A DNA stretch of 64,000 bases from Aureliella helgolandensis (GTDB lineage: Bacteria > Planctomycetota > Planctomycetia > Pirellulales > Pirellulaceae), in contig NZ_CP036298.1 of NCBI RefSeq assembly GCF_007752135.1, forward strand, positions 5,766,859 through 5,830,858, written 5' to 3'. Below are positions 241 to 35,640 of the stretch, one piece after another. The notes beneath the pieces were generated by a model. That model worked only from the letters and a program-made list of their open reading frames with translations. It had not been told where the DNA came from and searched no databases. The first letter of the stretch is position 1; each line of letters opens with the position of its first letter. Both the position numbers and the translations under genes were made by a program.

Positions 241-1625
241 CAATGCTATGCCGAAGTTCAATCGGCTTGAAGTGCAATTGCTCCAGTGTTGTCTAGGTAG
301 CGGGAAGGGCTGTGAGTGGTGTTGATGTTACTGGGGAGACGGTGCCTCGAATCGCTCTGTAGCCACGGCAACTCTGCCTTGCTCACGCGGCGGGTTACGA
401 TTTCAATGGTCAAAGTTCAGTCGTATTGAGGTGCAGGTGCTCCTGTGGTGGGCATGAGACGGGAGAGGCTGTGAATGGTGTTAGTCTTACTGGGGAGGCA
501 GTGCCTCGAATCGCTCTGTAGCCACGGCAACTCTGCCTTGCTCACGCGGCGGGTTACGTTTTCAATGGTCGAAGTTCAGTCGTATTGAGGTGCAGGTGCT
601 CCTGTGGTGGGCAGGAGACGGGAGAGGCTGTGAATGGTGTTAGTCTTACTGGGGAGGCAGTGCCTCGAATCGCTCTGTAGCCACGGCAACTCTGCCTTGC
701 TCACCGGCGGGTTACGTTTTCAATTGGTCGAAGTTCAGTCGTATTGAGGTGCAGGTGCTCCTGTGGTGCGCAGGAGACGGGAGAGGCTGTGAATGGTGTT
801 AATCTTACTGGGGAGGCAGTGCTTCGAATCGCTCTGTAGCCACGGCAACTCTACCTTGCTCACGCGGCGGGTTACGATTTCAATGGTCAAAGTTCAGTCG
901 TATTGAGGTGCAGGTGCTCCTGTGGTGGGCATGAGACGGGAGAGGCTGTGAATGGTGTTAGTCTCACTGGGGAGGCAGTGCCTCGAATCGCTCTGTAGCC
1001 ACGGCAACTCTGCCTTGCTCACGCGGCGGGTTACGATTTCAATGGTCAAAGTTCAGTCGGCTTGAGGTGCAGGTGCTCCTGTGGTGGGCATGAGACGGGA
1101 GAGGCTGTGAATGGTGTTAGTCTTACTGGGGAGGCAGTGCCTCGAATCGCTCTGTAGCTACGGCAACTCTGCCTTGCTCACGCGGCGGGTTACGATTTCA
1201 ATGGTCAAAGTTCAGTCGGCTTGAGGTGCAGGTGCTCCTGTGGTGGGCATGAGACGGGAGAGGCTGTGAATGGTGTTAGTCTTACTGGGGAGGCAGTGCC
1301 TCGAATCGCTCTGTAGCTACGGCAACTCTGCCTTGCTCACGCGGCGGGTTACGATTTCAATGGTCAAAGTTCAGTCGTATTGAGGTGCAGGTGCTCCTGT
1401 GGTGGGCATGAGACGGGAGAGGCTGTGAATGGTGTTAGTCTTACTGGGGAGGCAGTGCCTCGAATCGCTCTGTAGCCACGGCAATTCTGCCTTGCTCACG
1501 CGGCGGGTTACGATTTCAATTGGTCGAAGTTCAGTCGTATTGAGGTGCAGGTGCTCCTGCGGTGGGCGCGTAGCAGGTTACGGATTGGGCGGGTCGGTGC
1601 TGCGCGACGGGTTACGGTTGGCGTG
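241..1625. repeat. Tandem array 1, exact 159-bp period, eight full copies
   Basis: The marker CCTCGAATCG (CTTCGAATCG in one copy) recurs at 345, 504, 663, 822, 981, 1140, 1299 and 1458, every interval exactly 159 bp. A decayed copy precedes it (about 241-344) and a divergent tail ends near 1625. Each unit contains CCTTGCTCACGCGGCGGGTT, the core also found in the arrays at 7, 10 and 35 kb, but only the right-hand arm of the inverted repeat seen there. The array ends about 50 bp beyond the stop codon of the minus-strand ThuA gene, so it lies at that gene's 3' end. 159 is divisible by three, yet stops interrupt the frames and no protein is credible. Confidence 0.95.
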
Positions 1626-1674
1626 ATTCAGATCTCGCGACAAAGGTGGATGCTGGCAGAGCCAAGTGCTTTCC

Positions 1675-4600
1675 TTAGAAGCCGAGTAGACTCTTCAGGG
1701 CGGCATCTTTTTCGGGACCTTGATGGAAGTCGAAGGCGCGCATGAAGTGATCTTGCTGGCTCGACGGAAGCTCTGGATCCTCGAGGATCTTGGCGAGATA
1801 CGTTGAAGCCTGGTCGGCTCGACTGCGCCACACGATCTCCCTGCCGGCTGGAGTATTCCATGCATCTCCCACTTTGTCCAACCAGGCGGCGAAGCACTGA
1901 TTAGCCTGACTTCGTTCGCCAATTCCCAATGCTTCCAGGTACCAGCGGTCTTTTCCATCGTACTGGCTAGCCAATTCGGCCCACAGAGATGCAGCGTCTG
2001 AAGACGAGCTGTCTCGCAGGGAAATAGCCAGCTCGCGTCGTACCTGCGGTGAAGCATCACGAACCAGTCGTGGACCGTAGCTCGCCACATCGAGCTTCAA
2101 TTGTCGGGCAAGGCGTATGCCCAGCATTCGTATGTTCGCATCTTGATCGGCCAGGGCTTGCTGGACCGTTGCACTGCCTCGTCCGTCGATCTTGCCGAGC
2201 AACCACAGTGCGCGAGCGCGATAGATAGGATTGTCATTCTTGGCCAGAACCTGCAGTGCGTTTTCGGCCTTCGTCCCTTGAGCATGCAGGGCTTGCCAAG
2301 CCAAAAAGCGAACGGCATAGTTAGGGTTTTTGAGTGCTTCAATCGCGCCATCGATGGTGTCGAAATCAAATTTGGGGGTCTTGTAAGAAGCATCTTGATC
2401 GGCAGGAATGATTCGGAACAAGCGCCCGCGTTCCAAGTCCCCCATACCGTGGCCTCCGACCCCGGGATCGTACCAATCGGCAATCACCAGGGAACCATCG
2501 GGAGCGACTTTGACATCCGAAGGGCGGAACCACTTGTCGTTTATTCCGGTGAGCACGTCGCGTATTTCGGCCTGATAACCCGCTCCCGAGTTGTCTAAAA
2601 GGTAGGCGCGGCAAACGTTGGGGCCAGCATCGCAGTGGAGCAATTGCCCGCGGAACATCGGCAAGCGATCCCCTTCATAAACGGTGATACCGGTTGGTGA
2701 ACCGGCACCCGTGAGCAGCAAGTTTGGGACTACGCCTGGGTCGTTCAAGTGCCAATGTCTTTCGGGAATGCTTTCGCTCATTCCGGTGCGGGGCGTTTGC
2801 CAGCCGGCTCCGGTCATCTCGTCCTTGTAGCCATAATTGCCGAACTCCATCACGTAGTTGATGCGGACTCCCTTATTACCGTCATCGTCGTTGTCCGACT
2901 GCCAAATCGCACCGTAGGAATCAACAGTGACCATCCAGTTATTTCGAAAGTTCCAGCCCAACGTCTCAAACTCGCTGCCATCTAAATTGCAGCGGAAAAC
3001 CATTCCCTCTTGGTACGGTTGCCGACTGGCGGACACCACGTTGCCAGCGAGGTCGGTGATAGGATTCCCATTCTTATCTTTTACTTCCTGCCCAGCATTC
3101 CCAAAATTGAAGTAGAGTTTTCCGTCGGGGCCAAAGGTAAATGCGTGGATGCCATGGTCATGCTGGCTGCCAGCAATTCCGCTGAACAACACCTCTTTGC
3201 TATCGGGGTGATCATCACCGTCGGTGTCGGTGAAAAGAAAGACCTTCGAGCCAGCTGACACGATCACTTTATCTCCCAACACGCACACACCGTGTGGCGA
3301 ATCAATATCGCGGCCTTGATAGAAGACGGTTTCCTTATCAGCCGTTCCATCTCCGTCGGTATCCTCAAGAATTAGAATTCGGTCTCCCTCGGGGCGCTGA
3401 CCATTGTGCTTGCGATAGTTAACGATTTCGCAAACCCACACCCGTCCTCGATGATCGATATCAATATTCGATGGACTCAACAACTGCGGTTCCGCGGCGA
3501 ACAGGGACGCAGCCAATTCGGGGCCCACCTCCAGTCCCGCCAGTGCTGATTCCACATCGTGGGAGCCATCATTTTCCGCGAGCCCGATTGGCGGCGGTGC
3601 CTCGTTGTAAACTAAGAACTGCACTTCCGCCGAATCACCGCAATTCGCTTGGTCCACGCCCCCATTGTCGAGGCCACCGCGAGCTTGGAAACGGTTGTAA
3701 CCCGCTGGAATTTCGAATTCGATCACCGAATTTGCATGGGTGCCAATCCCGTAGTCGACCGGATTGCCCGCGATGCGCATTGGTTCGCCGCCCGCGTTCA
3801 GCCCCTTGCGAACTTCACCAAACTGGGAGGTGGCATTCTTCCACTGCAGTTCGGTTAATCTTAACTCCCCGGCGGGGCCGCTCAAACGCGGCTCGGCCCA
3901 ATCGGCCCAATCGCAACTGTAGCCATTGCCGCCGTCAGTCACTACGAGAAAAAGCTTGCTTTGCGCTGAGCCGTCGAGCTTCACATCGATATCGGCAGCG
4001 TGTCCTGGGGTTTTGCTTGTAATGCTGGGGCTTGCAAACAGCGGCTTAGGGCTTGCCGCGTTTGGGTTTGCCCGCTTGACATTCTTGTTCTTCGCTGGAG
4101 CGGCGGATTGAGTATTCGGCTTGGGTTCATCTTGATTCTTTTCCAGTTCTGCACGATTTGGGTCGGGAGTCTCAACACCATTTTCGGGCACTTCACCGTG
4201 CGCGGTCCACACGATGGCATTCAAGGCGACTTTTCGAAAATTTGGATCAGCCCAATTCCAGTGAAAATGCCCCCCAGTGAATCCGAATCCACGCCCTCCG
4301 CCTTCTCTTTCAGCAGCCCAAGCCACATGCTGCGGCTCACCGTTGGCAACTGCTTGACGAACTGCAGGATTGCCACTGTGTGGACCATCCGGACGGCGGA
4401 GCGTATCCGCAGGGGGCAGAGCGGACAGGATCGGGGTCACACCCTGCATGCCATCGCGAAATCGCATGTGGTAGTACCATTCATCATTGATCGTGAACGG
4501 TTGCACACCTTGAGCCACAGGATGGTCAGGGAACGATTCGAACGTTCCATCCCAGTGAGGATTGACTGACCAATCGGTTTCGAAGTAGCCGCCCATCCAC

Positions 4601-5061
4601 TTTAGGAAAGCGTCGCCCGTTTTGCCTTTGGGCGTTTCGACGGCGTAGTGGATACAGACCAAACCGACACCAGAGTCCATGACAGCGTCGAATTCATCGA
4701 GGTGAGGATTCAGTAGATGTCTGCCCCCGCCGTCGCAGTAGACGACCACTGCATCAGCATCTCGCAAGGCCTCGGCGCCCTTTTCAGGCCATCCTTCGCG
4801 GAACACTTCAACCTGAAAACTAGGCATTGCCTCGGCCAAGCTATTGGCCAGCAACCGACAACCGGCATAGTGCTCGTGGGAACCATAACCATGGCTCGGC
4901 GCCCCTGCCAGAAACACGATTTTTTTGCTTCCCGAAACCTCCGCCTCAGCATTTTTCGTTTGCCCATGAAGCTGCAGAGGGAACAACAGGCAAGCCACAA
5001 ACCCTAGGCAAAGGCCGGGTCCAAGCAGGCTTACAAATCTTACGTGGCGGGGATTTAGCAT
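1675..5061 (-). CDS. Exported ThuA / NPCBM / PVC-type membrane-bound dehydrogenase with HEAT repeats
   Basis: A 1128-residue multidomain protein. An N-terminal hydrophobic signal segment (about residues 8-33) implies export. Residues about 45-290 are ThuA-like (LAGAPSHGYGSHEH, then GVGLVCIHYA and GGHFHWNW), a fold linked to sugar utilisation. A Pro/Asn/Lys-rich linker leads to an NPCBM-like carbohydrate-binding domain (about 355-487; DYGIGTHANSVIEFEIP). Residues about 510-905 resemble the planctomycete putative membrane-bound dehydrogenase beta-propeller, with two Asp-rich calcium-type loops (DTDGDGTADKE, DTDGDDHPDSKE). The rest looks like HEAT repeats. No CxxCH haem motif is present, although many relatives end in a cytochrome c domain. 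The following gene (5375) is divergent and encodes a Tat-exported sugar-type oxidoreductase, which fits extracytoplasmic carbohydrate catabolism. Substrate unknown. Confidence 0.85.
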   Translation of the reverse strand: MLNPRHVRFVSLLGPGLCLGFVACLLFPLQLHGQTKNAEAEVSGSKKIVFLAGAPSHGYGSHEHYAGCRLLANSLAEAMPSFQVEVFREGWPEKGAEALRDADAVVVYCDGGGRHLLNPHLDEFDAVMDSGVGLVCIHYAVETPKGKTGDAFLKWMGGYFETDWSVNPHWDGTFESFPDHPVAQGVQPFTINDEWYYHMRFRDGMQGVTPILSALPPADTLRRPDGPHSGNPAVRQAVANGEPQHVAWAAEREGGGRGFGFTGGHFHWNWADPNFRKVALNAIVWTAHGEVPENGVETPDPNRAELEKNQDEPKPNTQSAAPAKNKNVKRANPNAASPKPLFASPSITSKTPGHAADIDVKLDGSAQSKLFLVVTDGGNGYSCDWADWAEPRLSGPAGELRLTELQWKNATSQFGEVRKGLNAGGEPMRIAGNPVDYGIGTHANSVIEFEIPAGYNRFQARGGLDNGGVDQANCGDSAEVQFLVYNEAPPPIGLAENDGSHDVESALAGLEVGPELAASLFAAEPQLLSPSNIDIDHRGRVWVCEIVNYRKHNGQRPEGDRILILEDTDGDGTADKETVFYQGRDIDSPHGVCVLGDKVIVSAGSKVFLFTDTDGDDHPDSKEVLFSGIAGSQHDHGIHAFTFGPDGKLYFNFGNAGQEVKDKNGNPITDLAGNVVSASRQPYQEGMVFRCNLDGSEFETLGWNFRNNWMVTVDSYGAIWQSDNDDDGNKGVRINYVMEFGNYGYKDEMTGAGWQTPRTGMSESIPERHWHLNDPGVVPNLLLTGAGSPTGITVYEGDRLPMFRGQLLHCDAGPNVCRAYLLDNSGAGYQAEIRDVLTGINDKWFRPSDVKVAPDGSLVIADWYDPGVGGHGMGDLERGRLFRIIPADQDASYKTPKFDFDTIDGAIEALKNPNYAVRFLAWQALHAQGTKAENALQVLAKNDNPIYRARALWLLGKIDGRGSATVQQALADQDANIRMLGIRLARQLKLDVASYGPRLVRDASPQVRRELAISLRDSSSSDAASLWAELASQYDGKDRWYLEALGIGERSQANQCFAAWLDKVGDAWNTPAGREIVWRSRADQASTYLAKILEDPELPSSQQDHFMRAFDFHQGPEKDAALKSLLGF

Positions 5062-5374
5062 CGATCAAATCTCTGGGGTGCGTGGTGGGAGTGGCCCGCG
5101 ATTGCCGGTGCACTCATCAACATACCTGTCATGAAGCAGTGGAGGCAGGGTGATAGTAGGAATAGCGAGATGGCAATAATTATAGACACAGCGGTTGCCG
5201 CAACGCCATATGTCCGAGATAAAAGCCAGATTCCACCCCTTGGGCCCGACGTGGTATGATCGCTCATAGTACCATATAGGCAGTTGAAAACCGCATAGTA
5301 GCTTGCCTCAGGATCGCTTTCCAAGCTGGCAGGCAACCAACAATTCTCCTACTATTTCCTAAGGAATCTGTAGC

Positions 5375-6745
5375 ATGTCGATGCAACCACGTCGTGATTT
5401 TCTGAAAACCTCTGCAGCTGGTAGCGCCGCTGTCGCCGCCACATTATGGAACGCGAGAATGTCCGCCGCCCAAGAAGCGTCGAACAAGCCCAGAATTGCA
5501 GCGATCGGTGTAGGGGGTAGCCGCGGTCGTTATAGCCAGGGAGGTGGCATCGCGCGACGCGCATCGAAATTCGGGGAAATGATTGCCGTGTGCGACGTCG
5601 ATGACCTGCACACAGCGGAGTTCAATAAAGACTTCGGCGACAAATTGGGAATGTACCGCGACTACCGCGACCTGTTGAGTAAAGAGAAGCCCGATGTGGT
5701 TACCATCGGCACACCAGACCATTGGCACGTTCCCATTGCAATCGCTGCCCTGCGCGCTGGCAGCGACGTCTACTGCGAAAAACCGCTGACGTTGACGATC
5801 GATGAAGGCAAGCAAATTTGCCAAGTGGTCAAGGAGACCGGTCGAGTATTCCAAGTGGGTACCCAACAACGCAGCCAAGACAACTCGCGATTCCTCAAGG
5901 CCATTGCCATGGTCCACAGTGGCCGGCTCGGAAAAAATGTGAACGCTTACGTTGCGATTGGTGGAGCCCCCACGTGCGAACCGATTGAGGGTTCCGCAGC
6001 CCCCGACGATCTTGACTGGAACATGTGGGTTGGGCCAGCTCAAGCGGTCGAGTACAGTGAGAAACGTCGGAAGGAATTCCGCTGGTTCTATCAATATTCA
6101 GGTGGAAAAATGACCGACTGGGGAGCCCACCACATCGACATTGCCCAGTGGGCGTTGGGACATCAAGATTCCGGTCCCGTTAAGATCAGCGGAACAGGCA
6201 CCTTGCCGAGTATCGTGCCAGCCGAATTCGACTGGGCTGGCCTTTTCAAAGGTGATGCAACCCTTCCCCCAGCGTTCAACACTGCCGTGAACTTCAGTAT
6301 CGATCTGGAGTATGCAGATGGCGCCAAAATGAGTGTCAACGATGTTTACAAACGTGAATCGGACAACGTGGACTTCGGAAACGGAATCCTGCTTGAAGGG
6401 GACGCAGGACGAATTTTCGTCAACCGCGGAAAGCTAGAAGGACGCCCGATTGATCAGTTGACCGAAAAAGACAATCAGGAACTCGACGCTATCATCATTG
6501 AACTGTGCAAGGGCAAGCAACCAGGCAACCACATGGGTAATTTCTTCGACTGTCGAGAAGATGGTAGCCTGCCGATTTCGGATGTCTACACCCACCACCG
6601 CACCATGACCGCTTGCCACCTGTGCAATATTGCCCTCATGCTGAAACGCGACTTGAACTGGGATCCCAAGGCAGAGCGTTTTGTCAACGATGAAGCGGCC
6701 AACGCGTTGCTGAGCCGTGAGAGTCGCCCCGGGTTTACGGCTTAA
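5375..6745 (+). CDS. Tat-exported Gfo/Idh/MocA family oxidoreductase
   Basis: A 456-residue protein with a twin-arginine signal (MSMQPRRDFLKTSAAGSAAV) ending near an Ala-rich site before residue 35. The Rossmann segment (IAAIGVGGSRGR) and the family's hallmark EKP motif (YCEKPLTLTIDEGK, about residue 134) identify a Gfo/Idh/MocA NAD(P)-dependent oxidoreductase. GGKMTDWGAHHIDIAQWALG supplies the conserved Asp/His region near the active site. The ATG at 5375 follows a TAAGGAA-like ribosome site. In planctomycetes such exported members are abundant and probably act on sugars or cyclitols in the periplasm; the substrate cannot be read from sequence. Divergent from the ThuA gene, with about 310 bp between them as a shared promoter region. 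Confidence 0.9.
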   Translation: MSMQPRRDFLKTSAAGSAAVAATLWNARMSAAQEASNKPRIAAIGVGGSRGRYSQGGGIARRASKFGEMIAVCDVDDLHTAEFNKDFGDKLGMYRDYRDLLSKEKPDVVTIGTPDHWHVPIAIAALRAGSDVYCEKPLTLTIDEGKQICQVVKETGRVFQVGTQQRSQDNSRFLKAIAMVHSGRLGKNVNAYVAIGGAPTCEPIEGSAAPDDLDWNMWVGPAQAVEYSEKRRKEFRWFYQYSGGKMTDWGAHHIDIAQWALGHQDSGPVKISGTGTLPSIVPAEFDWAGLFKGDATLPPAFNTAVNFSIDLEYADGAKMSVNDVYKRESDNVDFGNGILLEGDAGRIFVNRGKLEGRPIDQLTEKDNQELDAIIIELCKGKQPGNHMGNFFDCREDGSLPISDVYTHHRTMTACHLCNIALMLKRDLNWDPKAERFVNDEAANALLSRESRPGFTA

Positions 6746-6958
6746 GATCCGGTCGAACCGGCAGCATCGTGCCATTGTTTTTGCTTCCGGCCTGGCTGGC
6801 CGGTCGCCTCCCAGCGGAGCGGTTTGTCGACATTGCAATCCAGTTGCATTGCAATAATTGCAGGCCGCACCGCTCAGCAGCAACGACTGCAGCCTCGCTG
6901 ACGCGACGACTCACCACAACTGGCTCGCGCTCCAGACGCACCTGACTGATAGGCAGGC
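6746..6958. repeat. Intergenic segment with an isolated decayed repeat copy
   Basis: The spacer after the oxidoreductase contains CTCGCTGACGCGACGACTCAC near 6894-6914, which matches one arm of the array core in diverged form. A short GC-rich palindrome (CCGGCC...GGCCGG near 6787-6803) lies upstream after a T run and may be terminator-like. No gene is visible. Confidence 0.45.
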
Positions 6959-6959
6959 T

Positions 6960-8425
6960 TGGCGATAGTCAGGCGTTCCTGATTGATGGTCTCGGCGATC
7001 CCCAGCGCAACCCGACGCGTCAGCGAGGACGTTGGACAACTCAGCAACTGGAGTGCTAGAACTCAGGAAACTTCTCACCATGCTTGGCCTGCTTGCGAGG
7101 CTACTAGCCTTGCTTACGCGGCGGGTTACGATGGTGGAGCAAGACAGATAGCTGCACCAGACTACTGGCAGGCTTGGCGACAGCTAGGCGTTCCTGATTG
7201 GTAGTCTCGGCGATCCCCAGCGCAACCCGACGCGTCAGCGAGGACGCTGGACAATTCAGCAACTGGATTGCTGGAGCCCGGGAAACTTCCCACCATGCTT
7301 GGCCTGCTTGCGAGGCTACTATCCTTGCTTACGCAGCGGGCTACAATGGTGAAGGAAGACATCCAGATGCACCTTACTACTGGCAGACTTGGCGACAGCT
7401 AGGCGTTCCTGATTGGTAGTCTCGGCGAACCCCAGCGCAACCCGACGCGTCAGCGAGGACGCTGGACAATTCAGCAAATGGAGTGCTAGAACTCAGGAAA
7501 CTTCCCATCATGCTTGGCCCGCTTGCGAGGCTACTATCCTTGCTTACGCGGCGGGCTGCGATGGTGAAGGAAGACATCCAGATGCACCTGACTACTGACA
7601 GGCTTGGCGACAGCCAGGCGTTCCTGATTGATGGCCTCGGCGATAGCCAGCGCAACCCGACGCGTCAGCGAGGACGCTGGACAATTCAGCAAATGGATTG
7701 CTGGAGCCCGGGAAACTTCCCACCATGCTTGGCCTGCTTGCGAGGCAACTATCCTTGCTTACGCAGCGGGCTACAATGGTGAAGGAAGACATCCAGATGC
7801 ACCTTACTACTGGCAGACTTGGCGATAGTCAGGCGTTCCTGATTGATGGTCTCGGCGATAGCCAGCGCAACCCGACGCGTCAGCGAGGACGCTGGACAAT
7901 TCAGCAACTGGATTGCTGGAGCCCGGGAAACTTCCCATCATGCTTGGCCCGCTTGCGAGGCTACTATCCTTGCTTACGCAGCGGGTTACAATGGTGAACG
8001 AAGACATCCAGATGCACCTTACTACTGGCAGGCTTGGCGACAGCTAGGCGTTCCTGATTGATGGTCTCGGCGATCCCCAGCGCAACCCGACGCGTAAGCG
8101 AGGACGCTGGACAATTCAGCAACTAGATTGCTGGAGCCCGGGAAACTTCCCACCATGCTTGGCCTGCTTGCGAGGCTACTATCCTTGCTTACGCAGCGGG
8201 TTACAATGGTGAAGGAAGACATCCAGATGCACCTTACTACTGGCAGACTTGGCGATAGTCAAGCGTTCCTGATTGATGGTCTCGGCGATAGCCAGCGCAA
8301 CCCGACGCGTCAGCGAGGACGCTGGACAATTCAGCAACTGGATTGCTGGAGCCCGGGAAACTTCCCACCATGCTTGGCCTGCTTGCGAGGCTACTATCCT
8401 GGCTTGCGCGGCGGACTGCGATGGG
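6960..8425. repeat. Tandem array 2, exact 215-bp period, seven copies
   Basis: The marker AGGCGTTCCTGATTG (AAGCG in the last) starts at 6971, 7186, 7401, 7616, 7831, 8046 and 8261, each 215 bp apart. Every unit has a left arm CAACCCGACGCGTCAGCGAG and, about 90 bp on, a right arm CCTTGCTTACGCGGCGGGTT. These are imperfect reverse complements, so each unit could form a long hairpin. Sequence variants are shuffled among copies (GATCCCCAG or GATAGCCAG; GCGGCGGG or GCAGCGGG), the pattern expected from unequal exchange. Because 215 is not a multiple of three, open frames across it shift with every copy and are not genes. Confidence 0.95.
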
Positions 8426-8836
8426 GGATTGCGTCAGGTCCATGGTCGCAGAGATCCTTGGCACTCTTTTCGCTCGCAGCATTCTGCTCCTCCCAGGCCG
8501 TGGAACCACCTAAACGGCCAACCGCTGGCTGGCGCTGAGGCACCATTCTCCCATAAAGACTGAAAAGTGATTTAGACTGCAACTTACCACCACCAATCTA
8601 CACGCAAGAACGAGATTACCTACATTTACGGTCACTTCGTTTTCCGGCTCTTTCAGTTACAATTGAGGACTTCCAACCGCTTCCGCGAGCTGCAGATGGA
8701 AATCCAACAGAGCCTTCCCCCCAAGATCACGAATTCACCGGACAGGTCAAGTGCCTGCCAACTCCGGGTTCGCCTCCACGAATGCCGCCACTTACTGCTC
8801 GCCGACCAGAAATTTCGTCCTTCCAGAATTTTGGCT
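8426..8836. other. Spacer between array 2 and the orphan exported protein gene
   Basis: About 410 bp without a convincing gene. A frame in register with the downstream gene is open from a TTG at 8663, but it has no ribosome site and no coding-like character; a second in-frame ATG occurs at 8696. The segment probably carries the promoter of the 8837 gene. I recognise no box elements in it. Confidence 0.4.
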
Positions 8837-9907
8837 ATGTTGATCCCCCCCCAGCGGTCTTACCTGCTACCCTTTTCCATTTTTCTATGCAGCTTTTCCT
8901 GGATGGGGTTGGTGCAATCCGCTCAGGCTCAATCGACGATTCAAGAACAATTGCGATTGCTCGAAGAGAGCCGTCTTAACAATGAAGAGCGTTTAATATC
9001 GGCCGAGGGTAAGGGGGTTTTGAAGCGTTGGTTCGTCGATACTGACTCCGCGGAGCCGCTGCAAACGACCGACGCGACGATTGACCTGCTCTACGATTCC
9101 TCCAAATTTCTACTAATTATTAACAATCACTTTCGATTGCAGGAATTGCGGGTACGGGAATTGGTGGAAATAGGCGATTTGGTGGCTGATAGAATACCCG
9201 CCGGCAAACAATGGGAGGAAACCAATATTTCCAAGACCCTTGTACTTGGAGATGGCGACGCCATCTATTCCGCCGAATGGTTGGCTGATGGTAGCTGTAC
9301 TGGCGAAATCGATTTTGTATTCTCTCGACAATCAGTGCTAAGGACAGCAGGTTACCCCTTTGAACACCCATTACACCTATGGAAAGAGGCACTCAATATC
9401 AGTCGGATCAAGCCAGAGCAAACGAAGCTGACTCCTTTGGCAAGCGGAGGACTGATTGGAATTGAATCTCTCAATACGTTCAACTTAAAATTCTACTTCT
9501 TTGGCGACTTCGGCTTTGATCTGCGACGCGTGAGTACTCAAAGAATGGATACGGGACTCCCAATCCGAGAATACTCCTTTGACTGGGGTGAATCGGCTGG
9601 AGTCCACTACTTGAAGCGATTTTCGAGCACGATTAATCTCACCGCCACCAATGAGATTACTAGGGAACATACGATTGCATCGAAAAAAACACTTGAAGTC
9701 GACTTTGTTGATTTTAAAGTGAATCAGCCAATTGAGAAAAACCGATTTCTCCTTTCACACTCTGGCATTCCTATCGGGACGCACTTCACCGACAATCGGT
9801 CGCAAGTGGCCGGCCGTGAAGCGACGCTTGAATTCGACGGCACTCGGTTGATTCCTCTCAACCGAAACTCGCCAGAGAAGGCTGAGAAACAGGCGAACGA
9901 CGGCTAG
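8837..9907 (+). CDS. Exported protein of unknown function
   Basis: I do not recognise this 356-residue product. The ATG at 8837 is chosen because it places a classical signal peptide at the N-terminus (MLIPPQRSYLLPFSIFLCSF, ending in QSAQAQ); the frame extends upstream to 8663 but that would bury the signal 58 residues inside. The mature part is mixed alpha/beta, Glu/Arg-rich at first (IQEQLRLLEESRLNNEERL), with no metal or nucleotide motif that I can name; the C-terminal HSGIPIGTHFTDNR and the frequent short hydrophobic strands suggest a beta-rich periplasmic domain. The gene is bracketed by two related repeat arrays and appears locally more AT-rich than its neighbours, so it could be a lineage-specific insertion. 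Confidence 0.75.
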   Translation: MLIPPQRSYLLPFSIFLCSFSWMGLVQSAQAQSTIQEQLRLLEESRLNNEERLISAEGKGVLKRWFVDTDSAEPLQTTDATIDLLYDSSKFLLIINNHFRLQELRVRELVEIGDLVADRIPAGKQWEETNISKTLVLGDGDAIYSAEWLADGSCTGEIDFVFSRQSVLRTAGYPFEHPLHLWKEALNISRIKPEQTKLTPLASGGLIGIESLNTFNLKFYFFGDFGFDLRRVSTQRMDTGLPIREYSFDWGESAGVHYLKRFSSTINLTATNEITREHTIASKKTLEVDFVDFKVNQPIEKNRFLLSHSGIPIGTHFTDNRSQVAGREATLEFDGTRLIPLNRNSPEKAEKQANDG

Positions 9908-9954
9908 CGAGTGCCAATCCAAGTAGGCGCGAGACGGTACGTCAACAGTCTCCC

Positions 9955-11415
9955 GCTCAATCGGACAGGCAAGCTTGGCGATAGCCATCGTAACCCGACG
10001 TGTTAGCGAGGACGTTGGACAACTTAGCAACTGGATTGCTGGAACTCAGGGTACTTCCCACCATGCTTGGCCTGCTTGCGGGGCTGCTATCCTTGCTTAC
10101 GCGGCGGGTTACGATGGTGAAGTAACACAGACCGCTGCACCTGACTACTGGCAGGCTTGACGATCCCCATTGCAACCCGACGCGTTAGCGAAGACGTTGG
10201 ACAACTCAGCAACTGGATTGCTGGTACTCAGGGTACTTCCCGCCATGCTTGACCTGCTTGCGGGGCTGCTATCCTTGCTGACGCGGCGGGTTACGATGGT
10301 GAAGGAAGACAGACAGATGTACCAGACTACTGGCAGGCTTGACGGTCCCCATTGCAACCCGACGCGTTAGCGAAGACGTTGGACAACTCAGCAACTGGAT
10401 TGCTGGTACTCAGGGTACTTCCCGCCATGCTTGACCTGCTTGCGGGGCTGCTAGCCTTGCTGACGCGGCGGGTTACGATGGTGAAGGAAGACAGACAGAT
10501 GTACCAGACTACTGGCAGGCTTGACGATCCCCATTGCAACCCGACGCGTTAGCGAGGACGTTGGACAACTCAGCAACTGGATTGCTGGAACTCAGGATAC
10601 TTCCCACCATGCTTGGCCTGCTTGCGGGGCTGCTAGCCTTGCTGACGCGGCGGGTTACGATGGCGAAGGAAGACAGACAGATGTACCAGACTACTGGCAG
10701 GCTTGACGATCCCCATTGCAACCCGACGCGTTGGCGAGGAGGTTGGATGATTCAGCAACTGGATTGCTGGAACTCAGGGTACTTCCCGCCATGCTTGGCC
10801 TGCTTGCGAGACTGCTATCCTTGCTTACGCGGCCGGTTACGATGGTGAAGTAACACAGACCGCTGCACCAGACTACTGGCAGGCTTGACGATCCCCATTG
10901 CAACCCGACGCGTTAGCGAGGACGTTGGATGATTCAGCAACTGGATTGCTGGAACTCAGGGTACTTCCCGCCATGCTTGGCCTGCTTGCGAGGCTGCTAG
11001 CCTTGCTTACGCGGCGGGTTACGATGGTGAAGGAAGGCAGACAGATGTACCAGACTACTGGCAGGCTTGACGATCCCCATCGCAACCCGACGCGTTAGCG
11101 AGGACGTTGGACAACTTAGCAACTGGAATGCTAGAGCCCAGGGTACTTCCCGCCATGCTTAGCCTGCTTGCGAGGCTGCTAGCCTTGCTTACGCGGCGGG
11201 TTACGATGGTGGAGAAAGACAGATAGGTGCACCAGACTACTGGTAGGCTTGGCGATAGCCATCGCAACCCGACGCGTTAGCGAGGACGTTGGATGATTCA
11301 GCAACTGGATTGCTGGAACTCAGGGTACTTCCCGCCATGCTTGGCCTGCTTGCGGGGCTGCTAGCCTTGTTTACGCAGCGGGTTACGATGGTGAAGCAAG
11401 ACAGGCAGGTACGGA
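9955..11415. repeat. Tandem array 3, exact 182-bp period, eight copies
   Basis: The marker AACCCGACG starts at 9992, 10174, 10356, 10538, 10720, 10902, 11084 and 11266, each 182 bp apart. The unit is the array-2 unit lacking 33 bp (215 minus 182), the difference lying between two GGCGA-type motifs beside GCAGGCTTG. It retains both arms of the long imperfect inverted repeat. A variant block (GAAGTAACACAGACCGCTGC) occurs in the first and fifth copies only, showing shuffling. The array fills the gap between two convergent genes (stops at 9907 and 11423). Confidence 0.95.
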
Positions 11416-11422
11416 GGGCGGT

Positions 11423-12034
11423 TTAGCGTTTGCGATAGAGTTCGATGTGATAGGGTCCGCGAAACATCAGCAGCAGCGCGCCGGATCTGGCAAAACGATC
11501 AAACACGAGTCGCAGAAAATGCTCCTCGCCTGGCCATGGATAGGCAAACACAATGGCAAAATCTTCCAGCGGCATATCATATGAATCGTAGGCGGGCTCC
11601 AAATCATGGGTGAGCGACACGAGTGGATCGGTATCTTCCGCCAAGCGTTTGGCGCCCCGCGGTAGAAAATTCCCCTGCCATATTTCGGCATCAACTTGGT
11701 TGTCCTTGAGCAGCTTGCGCCCCTCCTCACACAAAAATGGCTCTGCCTCGACACCAATGGCATCCAATCCAAGAATACCGGCCACTCCTGTAACGACACC
11801 AAAGCCGCACCCCCATTCGACAAAGAGGCGCCCATCGATCAGGTCGCGTTGGACGCACTCAGTTAACGCGCTGGCTACGAGGTTGAAGTCGCATTCTATG
11901 TATTGTGGCAGTGGTTTTTGCGGGAATTGATCCCAGTAGAGTTCGATTCTGGCGCGACAGGCAACCAACCAATCTGCCACCTGTTGGGAGAATGCGTCTT
12001 CCGACAATTCAATTTCAATGGAAAGGAGTGCCAT
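11423..12034 (-). CDS. SAM-dependent methyltransferase-like protein
   Basis: A 203-residue protein whose segment VEWGCGFGVVTGVAGILG (about residues 71-88), followed by an acidic strand end (GVEAEPFL), matches the class I methyltransferase glycine-rich SAM-binding motif and the acidic residue that binds the ribose. FAIVFAYPWPGEEHF occupies the place of motif IV. No signal peptide, so cytoplasmic. The substrate cannot be inferred. It is short for a family whose members commonly have 220-280 residues, and has little C-terminal extension. The stop codon lies 8 bp from array 3. A possible small cysteine-rich gene lies immediately upstream on the same strand. Confidence 0.7.
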   Translation of the reverse strand: MALLSIEIELSEDAFSQQVADWLVACRARIELYWDQFPQKPLPQYIECDFNLVASALTECVQRDLIDGRLFVEWGCGFGVVTGVAGILGLDAIGVEAEPFLCEEGRKLLKDNQVDAEIWQGNFLPRGAKRLAEDTDPLVSLTHDLEPAYDSYDMPLEDFAIVFAYPWPGEEHFLRLVFDRFARSGALLLMFRGPYHIELYRKR

Positions 12035-29180: not shown

Positions 29181-32042
29181 GTGTCCCACGACACAATTCG
29201 ACTTAGGGGAGTCCGCGTCCACAATCTTCAGAATGTGGACGTGGACATTCCACGTGGCAAGCTCATCGCAGTTTGCGGGCTCAGCGGCTCAGGCAAAACA
29301 TCTTTGGCGATCGACACGCTGTACGCCGAGGGGCAACGTCGCTACATCGAAAGCTTCTCCGCCTACACGCGGCAGTTCCTTGAGAGAATCGATAAGCCAG
29401 ATTACGATTCCATCGAAGGGCTCCCACCGGCCCTCGCCGTCCGCCGCGGAAGTACCCCGCGGGGCAATCGCAGCACCGTTGGGACAGCCAGTGAGACGCT
29501 GGACTACCTGCGACTGTTGTTCTCTAAGATCGCTAAGCTTAATTGCCATCAATGCGGGCAACCGATCGTTGCGCACGGCCCCCAGTCAACGGCTTTGCAT
29601 CTAGCCTCTCTGCCTAAATCCGCTAAGGTCATGCTGGCCTTTGCAGCCCACTGGGAGGATGTCGCAGAGCGCGCCGATACCTTGGCCGACTTGCAAGCCT
29701 CCGGATTCGTCCGGCTCCTGTCCGGTGAACAAGAATTGCTGCTGGGCCAGACCGATCGCGAGGCATTGGCTAAAACACTGCCGAAATCGGGAACAGTTTG
29801 GGTCGTCGTCGATCGGCTCAAAGGCGGCGATCCCCCGGCACGGACAACCGAAAGCCTTGAAACCGCTTATGCGCGAGGCTACGGCGAAATTGCATTGTTC
29901 GTGTCTCAAGCAGCGGTCCCTCCAGAATCGATTTCTGCCTCCACCTCCGAGCTCGTCCTTCAAAAAGTCAATGGCGCCAACTGGTTATTGGAACGATTCT
30001 CCCAACGTTTAACTTGCACGCGTTGCGATCTCGAATATCCCGCTGCAGAACCGCGGTTGTTCAACTTCAACAGCCCACTGGGCGCGTGCGGGGCCTGCGA
30101 AGGATTTGGCGATACGATCGATTTGGACATGAATCGTATCGTACCGGATCCCAATAAAACATTGCGGGATGGCGCTATCGCTCCCTGGAACACCCCCGCG
30201 TACAGTCAGTGCCTCGACGAACTATTGGACATCGCCGACGACCTGCATCTACCGGTGGATGTGCCGTACCACAAGCTCACGAAGAAACAGCTCCGAACTT
30301 TGCACCACGGTGCACCTGCACAGGGATTCGAAGGCCTAGACGGATTCTTTGCGTGGCTTGAACGGAAGAAATACAAAATGCACGTCCGCGTCTTTCTATC
30401 GCGGTGGCGAAGCTACAACCAGTGCGCAGCCTGCCAAGGTGCCCGGCTCAACCCCTTGGCACTATCCTACCGCGTTGCCAACCACCATTTCGCCGACCTC
30501 AGCAGCATGGAGATTCAGCAGGTCACCGAATTGCTTCGCGAACTGGATTTGCCCTCCCGAGAACGAGAAATTGCCATCGGCCCACAGGAGAAACTTCTGG
30601 ACCGACTGGGCTACCTTCAAGATGTCGGCCTAGGTTATTTAACACTCGACCGCACCTTGAGAACGCTCAGCGGCGGCGAAGCCCAACGCACCGCATTGAC
30701 AGCGGCACTTGGCTCCAGCCTCGTGAACATGCTGTATGTGCTCGACGAACCCTCTGTGGGACTTCATCCACATGACGTGGAACGCCTCTCATCAGCTATC
30801 GGAACCCTGTCGGGACGCGGCAACACGGTGGTCATGATCGAGCACGAAGAACTGCTGCTTCAACAAGCAGATTGGTTGATCGAAGTTGGCCCGGCGGCCG
30901 GAGCTCAAGGCGGGCGAATCGTCTGCTCAGCTCCACGGAAAAAGATCGCCAAAGGCGTTAGCCTGACCGTCGACTACCTCAACGGTGTGAAGAGCATTGC
31001 CGTACCATCCACGCGGCGCTCCACCGAACAGGGATGGTTGGAGCTGACGGGTTGTACAGGGCACAATCTGCAACACGTTGACGCAAGCTTCCCACTTGGA
31101 ACCCTCTGCCTAGTTACCGGGGTCAGCGGCAGTGGCAAAAGCTCGCTGGTTCAGGATACGCTCTATCCGGCAATCGTCAACCAACTCTCCGGTGGGAGAG
31201 CTGATTGCTTGCCGTTTGAGCATCTCAAGGGATTGCACCAGATTGATGAATGCATCTCGGTAGACCAAAATCCAATAAGCCGTTCGCCGCGGAGCAATCC
31301 AATCACCTACGTCAAAGCTTTTGATGAGGTGCGGAGCGTTTTTGCTGGCACGGTTGACGCCAAGATCCAAAACTATTCACCTGGACATTTTAGTTTCAAT
31401 AGTGACTTGGGGCGTTGTGCAAATTGCAAGGGCGATGGCTCACTGCAAATCGACATGCAATTCTTAGCCGATGTGGTGATGACCTGTCCCGTCTGCCATG
31501 GCCGCCGTTATCGAGCCGAGATACTGCAAGTAAAGTACCGTGACCAATCGATCGCTGATGTGCTGGACATGACCGTCCGCGAGGCCATCCAGTTCTTTCG
31601 TGGTCAAAAGAAGGTGCAGCAAAAACTGCAGGTGTTAGTCGATGTAGGGCTGGGGTATGTTCACCTGGGACAGCCAGCCACGACTCTGAGCGCGGGAGAG
31701 GGGCAACGCCTGAAATTGGCCACTCACCTAGCTAGCGCTTCTCGCAAGCGCACACTCTTCATTCTGGACGAACCTACCACAGGCCTGCATACCCACGATC
31801 TGCTCCAATTGCTAGGTTGTTTCAATGCGTTGCTCACCGCGGGACATTCGCTGATCGTGGTCGAGCACAATTTGCACCTCATGGCCGCCGCAGATTACAT
31901 CCTGGACATCGGCCCAGGGCCTGCCCATTTGGGCGGCCGCCTAGTGGCTGCGGGCACTCCAGAACAAGTCTCTGCATCCCAACATTCTCAAACAGCCCCC
32001 TTTCTGCGGGAACATGGCGTCCGTCCCGATCCGCAACAGTAG
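29181..32042 (+). CDS. UvrA-like ABC ATPase (divergent paralogue)
   Basis: A 953-residue protein from a GTG start, with the full UvrA layout: Walker A1 GLSGSGKTS (about residue 34), the EGQRRYIESFSAYTRQFL segment, a first zinc module (CTRC...CGAC), signature LSGGEAQR with LDEPSVGLHPHD (about 496-520), Walker A2 GVSGSGKSS (about 647), a second zinc module (CANC...CPVC) and LDEPTTGLHTHD. UvrA recognises DNA lesions with UvrB in nucleotide excision repair. Two features depart from the housekeeping form: the segment after SIEGLPPAL reads AVRRGSTPRGNRSTVG, and the second signature reads LSAGEGQR instead of LSGGEAQR. It may therefore be a UvrA2-type paralogue with altered partner or substrate. It sits 35 bp behind ilvC. 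Confidence 0.85.
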   Translation: MSHDTIRLRGVRVHNLQNVDVDIPRGKLIAVCGLSGSGKTSLAIDTLYAEGQRRYIESFSAYTRQFLERIDKPDYDSIEGLPPALAVRRGSTPRGNRSTVGTASETLDYLRLLFSKIAKLNCHQCGQPIVAHGPQSTALHLASLPKSAKVMLAFAAHWEDVAERADTLADLQASGFVRLLSGEQELLLGQTDREALAKTLPKSGTVWVVVDRLKGGDPPARTTESLETAYARGYGEIALFVSQAAVPPESISASTSELVLQKVNGANWLLERFSQRLTCTRCDLEYPAAEPRLFNFNSPLGACGACEGFGDTIDLDMNRIVPDPNKTLRDGAIAPWNTPAYSQCLDELLDIADDLHLPVDVPYHKLTKKQLRTLHHGAPAQGFEGLDGFFAWLERKKYKMHVRVFLSRWRSYNQCAACQGARLNPLALSYRVANHHFADLSSMEIQQVTELLRELDLPSREREIAIGPQEKLLDRLGYLQDVGLGYLTLDRTLRTLSGGEAQRTALTAALGSSLVNMLYVLDEPSVGLHPHDVERLSSAIGTLSGRGNTVVMIEHEELLLQQADWLIEVGPAAGAQGGRIVCSAPRKKIAKGVSLTVDYLNGVKSIAVPSTRRSTEQGWLELTGCTGHNLQHVDASFPLGTLCLVTGVSGSGKSSLVQDTLYPAIVNQLSGGRADCLPFEHLKGLHQIDECISVDQNPISRSPRSNPITYVKAFDEVRSVFAGTVDAKIQNYSPGHFSFNSDLGRCANCKGDGSLQIDMQFLADVVMTCPVCHGRRYRAEILQVKYRDQSIADVLDMTVREAIQFFRGQKKVQQKLQVLVDVGLGYVHLGQPATTLSAGEGQRLKLATHLASASRKRTLFILDEPTTGLHTHDLLQLLGCFNALLTAGHSLIVVEHNLHLMAAADYILDIGPGPAHLGGRLVAAGTPEQVSASQHSQTAPFLREHGVRPDPQQ

Positions 32043-32508: not shown

Positions 32509-32518
32509 ATTCTTAGAT

Positions 32519-33706: not shown

Positions 33707-33747
33707 CAACTGCGTCTGAATGGCAACATTTGGGCGCAGTTGCTTTT
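33707..33747 (+). terminator. Terminator-like or processing hairpin between DUF1559 and lipoprotein genes
   Basis: CAACTGCG at 33707-33714 pairs perfectly with CGCAGTTG at 33735-33742, with a 20-base loop and a short T-rich stretch (CTTTTG). It may reduce read-through into the lipoprotein gene; the large loop and weak T tract make it a poor classical terminator. Confidence 0.35.
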
Positions 33748-33792
33748 GTACGTTCTCCCCAGTTCATCTTCGCTAAGAGATCTGAAAAACCA

Positions 33793-34296
33793 ATGAGTTT
33801 CACTTTCTCGCAATTGTTCAATGCCCCCACTCTCCGCGCTCTGTTAGTGCTCGTCCTATTGAGTGCCGTTGGTTGTGGGGAACCAGATTTCTATACCATG
33901 AAAGGAACGGCCACGCACGACGGAGTGCCGATCCCTAATTTACAAATTACGTTCGCCCCCGAGGCGATCGACTCGACGCGACCGCCAGTCACGATTACCA
34001 AAGTAGACGGTACGTTTGAAATGACCACGGGTAGGAACCGAGGTATCCCTCCAGGGAAATACACGATTCACATCGAGGATCCCGGCGCCGCAGATGGACG
34101 CGTCACGCCTAAGAAGGACGACTCATACTACGACGCTTATATGTATGTCGTAGAGCGTTACTCGCCTGCCAACTCTGACCTTAACTATGATGCCAAGCAG
34201 CATGCAAGTGGCTACGAACTCAAACTTGACACCAAGGATCCCTCAAAACCTCTAGTGAAGAACCGCACTGCTAAGAATACGACTGACAATCCCTAG
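33793..34296 (+). CDS. Small lipoprotein with carboxypeptidase-regulatory-like domain
   Basis: A 167-residue protein. The start at 33793 is chosen because it gives a lipoprotein signal, MSFTFSQLFNAPTLRALLVL ending in LSAVGC (Cys near residue 30); an open frame reaches back to 33730 without support. The mature chain (MKGTATHDGVPIPNLQITFA, then KVDGTFEMTTG and GIPPGKYTIHI) has the outline of a carboxypeptidase-regulatory-like or transthyretin-like beta sandwich. Such lipoproteins regularly follow DUF1559 genes in planctomycetes, suggesting a joint envelope function, but no biochemical role is known to me. Confidence 0.8.
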   Translation: MSFTFSQLFNAPTLRALLVLVLLSAVGCGEPDFYTMKGTATHDGVPIPNLQITFAPEAIDSTRPPVTITKVDGTFEMTTGRNRGIPPGKYTIHIEDPGAADGRVTPKKDDSYYDAYMYVVERYSPANSDLNYDAKQHASGYELKLDTKDPSKPLVKNRTAKNTTDNP

Positions 34297-34340
34297 CAGC
34301 GCTCACCGTGCTGACCAGATCAAGGCCGGGTGCACCGCCA

Positions 34341-35640
34341 CTACAGGTGCATCCGACCGTCACAGCGGACAAACTCCATTGCAACCCGACGCATCAGCGA
34401 GGACGTTGGACCATTCAGCAATTGGAAAATCAGCACCCGGGCAATGCTCGGCATACTTAGCCACTTGCAGGACCTCTCTCCTTGCTCACGCAGCGGGTTA
34501 CAATTGGAACACCCAACCTCTAGATGCGTCCGCCCGTCATGCTTACCCGACGCCATTGCAACCCGACGCGTCAGCGAGGACGTTGGACGACTCAGCAATT
34601 GGAGAGCCAGCACCCGGGCACTGCTCGGCATGCTTGGCTCACTTGCAAGACCACTCTCCTTGCTCACGCAGCGGGTTACAATTAGAACACCCGACCTCTA
34701 GATGCGTCCGCCCGTTATGCTTACCCGACGCCATTGCCACCCGACGCGTCAGCGAGGACGTTGGACCATCCAGCAATGGGAGAGCCAGCACCCGGGCACT
34801 GCTCGGCATGCTTGCCTCACTTGCAAGACCACTCTCCTTGCTCACGCAGCGGGTTACAATTGGAACACCCAACCTCTAGATGCGTCCGCCCGTCATGCTT
34901 ACCCGACGCCATTGCAACCCGACGCGTCAGCGAGGACGTTGGACGACTCAGCAATTGGAGAGCCAGCACCCGGGCACTGCTCGGCATGCTTGGCTCACTT
35001 GCAAGACCACTCTCCTTGCTCACGCAGCGGGTTACAATTTGAACACCCAACCTCTAGATGCGTCCGCCCGTCATGCTTGGACAAACTCCATTGCAACCCG
35101 ACGCGTCAGCGAGGTCGTTGGACGACTCAGCAATTGGAGAGCCAGCACCCGGGCAATTCCTGGCATGCTTGCCTCACTAGCGGGACCTCTCTCCTTGCTC
35201 ACGCAGCGGGTTACAATTGGAACACCCGACCGCTGGATGCGTCCGCCCATCATGTTTACCCGACGCCATTGCAACCCGACGCGTCAGCGAGGACGTTGGA
35301 CGACTCAGCAATTGGAAAGTCAGCACCCGGGCACTGCTCGGCATGCTTGCCTCACTAGCAGGACCACTCTCCTTGCTCACGCAGCGGGTTACAATTGGAA
35401 CACCCAACCTCTAGATGCGTCCGCCCGTTATGCTTACCCGACTCCATTGCAACCCGACGCGTCAGCGAGGACGTTGGACGTTTCAGCAATTGGAGAGCCA
35501 GCACCCGGGCAATTCCTGGCATGCTTGCCACTTGCAGGACCTCTCTCCTTGCTCACGCAGCGGGTTACAATTGGAACACCCGACCTCTAGATGCGTCCGC
35601 CCACTCTCCTTGGTCGTGCAACGGGTTACAAAATCAACAA
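34341..35640. repeat. Tandem array 4, about 178-bp period, seven copies
   Basis: The marker AACCCGACG (CACCCGACG once) begins at 34383, 34560, 34738, 34916, 35095, 35273 and 35451, intervals 177-179 bp. The left arm CAACCCGACGCGTCAGCGAG and right arm CCTTGCTCACGCAGCGGGTT are imperfect reverse complements (about 20 of 25 positions), as in arrays 2 and 3, but the intervening sequence differs (CAGCACCCGGGCACTGCTCG). It fills the gap between two convergent genes, a lipoprotein (stop 34296) and an M3 peptidase (stop 35688). It has no coding credibility because the period is not divisible by three. Confidence 0.95.

What the first reader, a model, noticed from the sequence alone, without database searches (positions are those of the whole stretch)
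241..35640. A family of four long tandem arrays with a shared core but different, exact periods
Seen directly: arrays at 0.2-1.6, 7.0-8.4, 10.0-11.4 and 34.3-35.6 kb have periods of 159, 215, 182 and about 178 bp. All share the core CCTTGCT[T/C]ACGC[G/A]GCGGGTTAC. Three of them also have a second arm, CAACCCGACGCGTCAGCGAG, which is an imperfect reverse complement of that core, about 90 bp upstream. Unit length is fixed within an array yet differs between arrays, so each locus was amplified separately from a common seed and then homogenised. Seven or eight copies at each site is also oddly constant.
Basis: seen in the sequence. Interest (0 to 1): 0.8.

Follow-up and report, generated by a model that had tools for sequence, protein, structure and literature searches.

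The report
Bacterial satellite arrays seeded by palindromic repeats
Between genes of a planctomycete bacterium, short mobile-repeat sequences have been copied head to tail into arrays of about 1.3 kb, most likely by recombination between neighbouring copies; the arrays are real and resemble known bacterial repeat clusters, but they are longer and more crowded than usual and one of their repeats is a landing site for two mobile elements.

Summary
Four core-bearing arrays exist (159x8.0, 215x6.9, 182x7.9, 178x6.9); a fifth (38840-40188, 193x7.0) was missed and belongs to an unrelated hairpin family. The 22-bp core is not private to them: 408 copies at up to 3 mismatches in the 8.44-Mb genome, in a 116-bp MITE-like element or in inverted pairs. 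Copy number is not constant (1.9-11.7 in 38 arrays). 'Separate amplification, then homogenisation' is supported: periods differ between loci and variants are reshuffled between units. Arrays with one core per unit tend to hold one extra core (9 of 11, 3.1 expected; 8 of 11 or 4 of 6 under stricter counts), as expected if unequal recombination between neighbouring copies built them; a broader edge test was not significant. The core is also the target of a 1532-bp IS1182-family element (15 of 17 copies clearly, 1 weakly) and of the MITE (22 of 29). The kind is known: tandem REP/REPIN clusters. No cognate RAYT was found and the core alone is no stable hairpin, so REP membership is not claimed. 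Function is unproven. Six long arrays lie within 82 kb.

The parts
301..1567 (-). Array 1: 8 units of 159 bp; each unit carries a diverged copy of the 116-bp element (type A) plus a spacer; a decayed spacer copy lies upstream and a decayed core-like piece at 1597-1617
   Evidence: TRF; profile hits in all 8 units, best E 1.1e-19; flanks; stops in all six frames, longest open stretch 64 codons
6931..8414 (.). Array 2: 6.9 units of 215 bp, each with two inverted arms (type B) and a spacer; decayed core at 6893-6914, exactly one period (215 bp) before the first core at 7108
   Evidence: decayed core position and 6 mismatches of 22
9968..11408 (.). Array 3: 7.9 units of 182 bp, type B; same unit as array 2 less a net 33 bp; fills a convergent gap (61 and 14 bp from the neighbouring ORFs as called)
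34376..35602 (.). Array 4: 6.9 units of about 178 bp, type B; fills a convergent gap; followed by a decayed core at 35608-35629
   Evidence: decayed core with 5 mismatches of 22
38840..40188 (+). Array 5 (not in the finding): 7.0 units of 193 bp of an unrelated family (type C) with two hairpins head to head
377..398 (-). Example core GTAACCCGCNGCGTNAGCRAGG (read on the minus strand); target of IS1182-type and MITE insertions elsewhere in the genome
49987..50130 (.). Solitary remnants of the type A element outside the arrays
   Evidence: 49987-50034 minus, 50037-50130 plus; E 6e-8 and 1.2e-7
1675..5061 (-). ORF with ThuA, NPCBM and DUF7133 domains whose 3' end faces array 1
8663..9907 (+). ORF (414 aa, no Pfam match) between arrays 2 and 3
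35688..37910 (-). Peptidase M3 ORF whose 3' end faces array 4; a match in all 15 genus genomes searched, this one included

Best explanation
The arrays are bacterial satellites. Each grew at its own intergenic site from a pair of nearby copies of an interspersed palindromic or MITE-like repeat (type A, B or C). Unequal exchange or replication slippage between the two copies duplicated 'repeat plus spacer', so the distance between the founding copies became the period; further unequal exchange and gene conversion changed the copy number and keeps the units alike. The arrays sit mostly after gene ends because insertions there are tolerated. The 22-bp core (types A and B) acts as homology seed and is also a landing site for an IS1182-family IS and a 116-bp MITE. 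Shown: anatomy, genome-wide spread, differing periods, reassortment between units, insertion specificity. Inferred: that the founding step was recombination at the repeat, and that the arrays have no selected function.
For: 408 core copies in the genome, 0 in the reversed-pattern control. 38 arrays in the covered 27% of the genome, periods 73-420. Four-gamete incompatible site pairs within arrays: A2 157/231, A3 66/153, A4 74/136, A5 84/136, A1 2/15; divergence tends to rise with unit distance; the two end units are the two most diverged in A1-A3, only the last unit in A4 and A5. Fence-post: of 11 arrays with one core per unit, 9 have one core more than their whole number of periods, 3.1 expected, P 8.7e-6; 8 of 11 if array 1 counts as a miss, P 2.4e-4; 4 of 6 with whole cores only and array 1 left out, 1.4 expected, P 0.004. 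Decayed in-register core exactly one period before array 2 (6893 against 7108). Arrays 2 and 3 share unit and spacer but differ by a net 33 bp. An unrelated hairpin family does the same: 70 copies at 24 loci, 14 of them multi-copy, with spacings such as 176, 191, 193, 201 and 216.
Against: The wider test of whether array edges lie near any core is not significant (21 of 44 edges within 15 bp, 18.7 expected, P 0.28; the Monte Carlo P values printed are wrong). The fence-post test was framed after seeing the data, counts 4 arrays through half cores cut by an IS or MITE and array 1 through a core with an indel that the script did not score, and leaves out 10 arrays with core hits on both strands and one at 1799810; a core that decays more slowly than its surroundings could also produce it. 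Core sites vary less than the rest within arrays 1-4 (10/88 against 153/650, Fisher P 0.009), which may mean selection. Some type C loci share a spacing (216 at two loci 10 kb apart; about 173 at two others), so not every period is private. No second isolate was available to show copy-number change. The cluster of six long arrays in 82 kb is not explained by independent events.
Confidence: 0.7

Rival explanations
1. The arrays are maintained because they do something: REP-like roles such as transcript 3'-end protection, gyrase or nucleoid-protein binding, or insulation between convergent genes (roles recalled, and named in the REP papers seen). Selection, not drift, sets unit size and total length.
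For: 35 of 38 arrays lie in gaps: 15 convergent, 19 tandem, 1 divergent, against 20%, 58% and 22% of gaps of at least 150 bp. Core less variable than the rest inside arrays, P 0.009. Unrelated families B and C give arrays of similar size in the cluster (six arrays, 1112-1484 bp). C hairpins keep pairing through changes on both sides: 93.5% of cells paired, 5 two-sided cells, 0 of 500 shuffles as high. Two terminator-like sites lie in array 1 units (537 and 696). The SBW25 paper suggests specific roles for such clusters (PMC3116915, passage).
Against: Avoidance of divergent gaps is also expected from harm to promoters. Genome-wide copy number and span vary widely. The terminator scan of 1-12000 finds fewer sites than shuffles (5 against a mean of 12.0). 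No Rfam match in the window at gathering thresholds. At 30 flanking-gene loci from genus relatives, many cut at contig ends, only one short repeat was seen (L154, 66 bp x 3.3).
Confidence: 0.15
2. A REP-associated tyrosine transposase (RAYT) copies the units, as proposed for REPs and REPINs, and the arrays are its products.
For: Seven Y1_Tnp hits in the genome, six over the cut-off; two at 479.9 and 481.0 kb stand beside 94-bp tandem arrays of palindromic units. Inverted type B pairs resemble REPINs.
Against: No core within 1.5 kb of any of the 7 Y1_Tnp places. Of 57 Y1_Tnp places in nine relatives 30 were fetched and 4 of these had a core-like match. The two proteins of this genome tested are IS200/IS605-type by NCBIfam and below the RAYT cut-off. 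Units include locus-specific spacers, which transposition of the repeat alone would not copy.
Confidence: 0.07
3. Repeated insertion of the MITE into its own core built the arrays.
For: The MITE does insert into cores (22 of 29 copies) and nested pairs are common. Array 5 has one loose match (2 of 11 mismatches) to a MITE end per unit.
Against: Nesting at that site would give tandem pieces of about 31 and 89 bp, as in the 147-bp nested pairs, not units of 159-215 bp with a spacer. Arrays 1-4 hold no MITE end at up to 2 mismatches of 11.
Confidence: 0.03
4. Assembly artefact.
For: No reads were available to check.
Against: The genome is one 8.44-Mb contig and units within an array differ from each other; collapse or false expansion would tend to give identical units.
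Confidence: 0.03

Closest known systems
REP clusters of GTAG-type families (PMC3733652, passages read)
   Same: [quoted passage not shown] its abstract names Planctomycetes among the phyla with tagged REPs.
   Different: Here the tag mostly reads GTAA or GCAA, the core alone is not a stable hairpin, no cognate transposase was found, and arrays reach about 12 units.
Tandem REPIN clusters and GI-GIII arrays of Pseudomonas fluorescens SBW25 (PMC3116915, passages and section 12 read)
   Same: [quoted passage not shown] the two largest GI-GIII arrays hold 12 sequences; arrays gathered near two chromosome places; authors infer a second mechanism of cluster formation and suggest roles.
   Different: The largest REPIN cluster there has four REPINs plus one REP; here type B arrays have about 2 to 12 units and the period differs between loci.
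Prokaryotic satellites (PMC6749651, passages read)
   Same: Tandem, partly intergenic satellites; Rhodopirellula baltica is in its table, with 29.
   Different: The passages seen describe no link to an interspersed palindromic element or an IS target for that species.
REP-targeting insertion sequences (PMC1525189, abstract read) and IS1272 of the IS1182 family (PMC5678879, passages read)
   Same: ISs that insert specifically into REPs; an IS1182-family member that uses palindromes as target.
   Different: IS1272 is reported to replace the target palindrome without duplication; here a 3-bp duplication is present in 15 of 17 copies.
BrickBuilt MITE with internal minisatellite of Porphyromonas gingivalis (PMC4596501, abstract read)
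   Same: Intergenic MITE associated with tandem repeats.
   Different: There a 23-nt repeat lies inside the MITE; here a whole element or inverted pair plus spacer is the repeat unit.

Membership tests
REP / REPIN (RAYT-mobilised) | High copy number, intergenic | tested here: met
   408 copies; of 60 solitary core clusters in the covered DNA, 55 in gaps between ORFs
REP / REPIN (RAYT-mobilised) | Single unit forms a hairpin | tested here: not met
   four core variants (three of this genome, one of a relative) fold no better than shuffles, z from -0.70 to 0.95
REP / REPIN (RAYT-mobilised) | Inverted pair forms a long hairpin | tested here: inconclusive
   type B units of arrays 3 and 4 pair their arms, z -4.05 and -3.50, 0 of 200 shuffles as stable; the array 2 unit does not in its best fold, z -2.30, 5 of 200; the array 1 element z -1.08. 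Arms are conserved across 9 units from 7 loci while middles differ
REP / REPIN (RAYT-mobilised) | GTAG-like tag at one end | tested here: inconclusive
   GTAA or GCAA mostly here; GTAG variants in an order-level relative, G051
REP / REPIN (RAYT-mobilised) | Cognate RAYT flanked by the repeat | tested here: not met
   0 of 7 Y1_Tnp places in this genome within 1.5 kb; 4 of 30 fetched places of relatives have a core-like match
MITE (116-bp element) | Terminal inverted repeats and target duplication | tested here: met
   29 full copies with both ends in the covered DNA; exact 4-bp duplication in 16 of 29; some of the rest are nested or composite
MITE (116-bp element) | Parent transposase with the same ends | tested here: inconclusive
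   none seen in the DNA covered (about 2 Mb); the IS1182-type IS has different ends
IS1182 family | Transposase above the curated score | tested here: met
   NF033551, 327.4 bits against 270; 17 near-identical copies
Prokaryotic satellite | Long head-to-tail tandem repeats | tested here: met
CRISPR array | Short conserved repeats with unique spacers | tested here: not met
   spacers within an array are the same sequence

The most novel reading that the evidence does not exclude
The arrays are selected structures rather than by-products: in the 82-kb cluster unrelated repeat families (B and C) converge on one architecture (units of about 160-215 bp, 6-8 copies, 1.1-1.5 kb, at gene ends), kept uniform by concerted evolution and perhaps copied locally as blocks (arrays 2 and 3 share spacers; array 5 and the array at 5848306 share a 35-bp tail). 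They could mark or shape a chromosome domain.
Probability: 0.1. Interest if true: 0.8.

Novelty: new variant of a known kind. Interest (0 to 1): 0.45.

Why it matters
How tandem REP and REPIN clusters arise is left open in the paper that describes them in SBW25, which infers a second mechanism (PMC3116915, passages). This genome holds dozens of arrays of at least three repeat families at sizes from 2 to 12 units, each with its own spacer and mostly its own period, so founding, growth and homogenisation can be read from sequence and tested with long reads. It also gives a case of one short sequence used as landing site by an IS1182-type IS and by a MITE that carries the same landing site within itself.

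Tried and rejected
Protein-coding repeats: rejected; four of the five periods are not multiples of 3, and array 1 has stops in all six frames, longest open stretch 64 codons. Known RNA: no Rfam hit at gathering thresholds in the window. Terminators: fewer than in shuffles over 1-12000, though two of the five sites found lie in array 1. CRISPR: spacers repeat. Origin or terminus effect: GC skew over 81 blocks (80 sampled plus the window's) changes sign near 4.2-4.3 Mb and at the contig ends, away from the window. Genomic island: of 28 window ORFs scanned, 22 match Pfam families and nothing in them points to an island; integrases and tRNAs were not searched for. My own first reading that the IS1182 element is the parent of the MITE was wrong: the shared ends in the copy at 7.677 Mb are those of a MITE that hosts the IS. 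A core-to-edge distance test gave no support (21 of 44, 18.7 expected, P 0.28); the Monte Carlo values printed are invalid because of a boolean-addition fault in my script. A first fold of a type B unit (z -3.35) used a typed composite of array 2 and 3 units; one search repeats it on window sequence, with a weaker result for array 2. A fold of part of the array 1 unit gave z 0.63. Comparison at orthologous loci was weak: genus relatives match the M3 peptidase at 83% identity at best, in an 86-residue piece, and 78% over nearly the whole length, so no close empty site could be read. Searches of the paper library (IS1182 targets, planctomycete tandem repeats, REP arrays, REP-targeting ISs) listed no paper that I recognised as describing this family; only open-licence papers are held, listings were capped, and I read passages or abstracts of six.

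Full report
Observation. Tandem Repeats Finder confirms all four arrays and adds a fifth at 38840-40188. The core matches 29 times in the window at up to 3 mismatches; dinucleotide shuffles give none. Arrays 2-4 also carry the inverted arm. Unit listings show that units differ from one another, which speaks against assembly collapse, though no reads were available.

Genome context. The window is G000:C1:5766859-5830858 of a single 8,439,957-bp contig; the core occurs 198 + 210 times at up to 3 mismatches, 0 in the reversed control. I fetched 80 evenly spaced 20-kb blocks, 20 targeted stretches and 20 stretches around the window. With the window they cover 2,303,010 bp. At period of at least 60 and score of at least 300, overlapping rows merged, they hold 38 arrays of 1.9-11.7 copies and periods 73-420. 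Most targeted stretches were chosen because they hold cores, so 38 is not an unbiased count. In the evenly spaced blocks outside the region 5.557-6.071 Mb (76 blocks, 1.52 Mb) there are 13 arrays, 2 with 5 or more copies; in that 514-kb region there are 7, of which 6 have 5.8-8.0 copies and lie in 5,767,159-5,849,417. At the sampled rate about 0.1 long arrays would be expected in those 82 kb (Poisson P 1.7e-9, or 1.4e-6 with a rate near its upper limit, which used 1.56 Mb). The limits of the cluster were drawn after seeing the arrays, so these P values are too small.

What the repeats are. Type A: isolated cores continue into a 116-bp element with ends CGGGCTGTTGA...TCAACAGCCCG. In the covered DNA 29 full copies pass my end patterns; 16 have an exact 4-bp duplication and 22 lie in the GTNA of another core by a loose test (up to 6 mismatches) that random 28-mers pass 46 times in 20,000. 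Forty copies of at least 95% identity were scored genome-wide, with only 40 of 293 candidates scored; of the nine other genomes searched, G013 and G025 have matches of 25-30 bases and seven have none. Array 1 is made of diverged copies of this element. Type B: inverted arms about 80 bp apart, in arrays 2-4 and at 4.81, 5.31, 5.33, 5.34 and 8.11 Mb; arms conserved, middles different. Folded as DNA, units of arrays 3 and 4 pair their arms (z -4.05, -3.50; 0 of 200 shuffles as stable); the array 2 unit does not in its best fold (z -2.30, 5 of 200) and the array 1 element does not stand out (z -1.08). The core alone does not fold better than shuffles. Type C: array 5, the array at 5848306 and the one at 111864 share a unit with two hairpins (z -3.10). 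It has 70 hits at up to 3 mismatches, at 24 loci, 14 of them multi-copy and holding 60 of the 70; spacings differ between most loci, but two loci share 216 and two about 173. Its hairpin keeps pairing through two-sided changes (the 23 rows are distinct variants of related sequences found by similarity to one pattern, so the shuffle figures are not probabilities).

Landing site. A 1532-bp IS1182-family element (NF033551) has 17 near-identical copies here. With its true ends (TAGGCTGTGAA...TTCACAGCCTA) 15 of 17 have a 3-bp duplication; my script scores 16 of 17 targets as core, but one of these (L190) is weak, so I count 15 clear, 1 weak, 1 not. Some of these ISs and MITEs stand at the end of an array (right edges at 4814138, 6515094, 3254460 and 2365873). 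Of nine other genomes searched with the transposase, seven have no match, G025 has pieces of a broken copy (best 52%) and G013 four 25-residue pieces. The one genome-contig scan, which finds close relatives only, gave five planctomycete MAG contigs at 47-60%.

How the arrays grew. Inside arrays, pairs of informative sites show all four combinations in 157/231, 66/153, 74/136 and 84/136 cases for arrays 2, 3, 4 and 5 and 2/15 for array 1; mean divergence tends to rise with distance between units; the two end units are the two most diverged in arrays 1-3, only the last one in arrays 4 and 5. Recurrent mutation could add to these counts. Arrays 2 and 3 share unit and spacer except for a net 33 bp. 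Array 5 and the array at 5848306 share a 35-bp tail beyond the array at 91%. Of 22 arrays with at least two cores, 11 have one core per unit on one strand; 9 of these hold one core more than the number of whole periods (3.1 expected, P 8.7e-6). Caveats: the test was chosen after inspection; four are counted by half cores interrupted by an IS or MITE, and array 1 by a core with an indel that the script missed; ten two-strand arrays and the one at 1799810 are left out. With array 1 as a miss it is 8 of 11 (P 2.4e-4); with whole cores only and array 1 left out, 4 of 6 (1.4 expected, P 0.004). A general test of edge-to-core distance was negative (P 0.28). My reading is that unequal recombination or slippage between neighbouring repeats founded the arrays, and that exchange keeps them uniform.

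Place among genes. With simple ORF calls (1654 ORFs of at least 110 codons), 35 of 38 arrays lie in gaps between ORFs: 15 convergent, 19 tandem, 1 divergent; gaps of at least 150 bp are 20%, 58% and 22% (binomial P about 0.002 for the convergent excess and for the divergent lack, or 0.011 and 0.003 with bp weights). Solitary core clusters: 22 convergent, 26 tandem, 7 divergent, 5 elsewhere, of 60. This fits either tolerance after gene ends or a role there.

Relatives. Of 60 genomes, this one included, 33 have core matches at up to 2 mismatches; within the genus counts outside this genome run from 0 to 123, and one genome of the family has 527. At 30 loci of two flanking genes in genus relatives (flanks of up to 1.5 kb, many cut at contig ends) TRF shows one short repeat, 66 bp x 3.3 in L154, while this genome's own two loci show the arrays. 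Relatives are too distant for a strain comparison.

Judgement. Tandem REP clusters with flanking DNA are described (PMC3733652, PMC3116915), as are REP-targeting ISs (PMC1525189) and palindrome targeting in the IS1182 family (PMC5678879). What I did not find described in the searches named in Tried and rejected is this family, arrays of this length and density whose periods differ between loci, and the double use of one core by an IS1182-type IS and a self-nesting MITE. I file it as a new variant of a known kind and do not file it as REP/REPIN, because the single-unit hairpin and cognate RAYT tests were not met.

Noticed in passing
window 38840-40188; G000:C1:5848306-5849417; G000:C1:111864-113178: Second, unrelated hairpin family (type C) that forms arrays with periods 193, 191 and 176; 70 copies at 24 loci genome-wide.
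   Followed up: yes
G000:C1, 17 copies, e.g. L178, L184, L215: IS1182-family IS of 1532 bp, 3-bp duplication in 15 of 17, inserted in the core in 15 clear cases of 17.
   Followed up: yes
G000:C1:630827, 6572758 and others: 116-bp MITE that inserts into the GTNA of the core and carries a core itself, giving nested copies; its parent transposase was not found.
   Followed up: partly
L106 5330-7500 (G000:C1:479329-481500): Two near-identical IS200-like transposase genes, each preceded by a tandem array of 94-bp palindromic units.
   Followed up: partly
L088 around 4326-6145 (G000:C1:1162325-1164144): ISNCY-family IS inserted in the spacer of a 229-bp array; nine such hits genome-wide.
   Followed up: partly
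G000:C1:6212260, 5311531, 7351103: A further repeat family shared, at weak scores, by three arrays (periods 73, 145 and 112).
   Followed up: no
window 44511-60035: Polysaccharide biosynthesis and export genes (export protein, epimerases, UDP-sugar dehydrogenase, flippase-like protein).
   Followed up: no
window 29181-32042: 953-aa ORF with a UvrA DNA-binding domain and ABC ATPase parts, just after a ketol-acid reductoisomerase gene.
   Followed up: no
G000:C1:612166-613193: Runs of G of varying length inside units of a 199-bp array.
   Followed up: no
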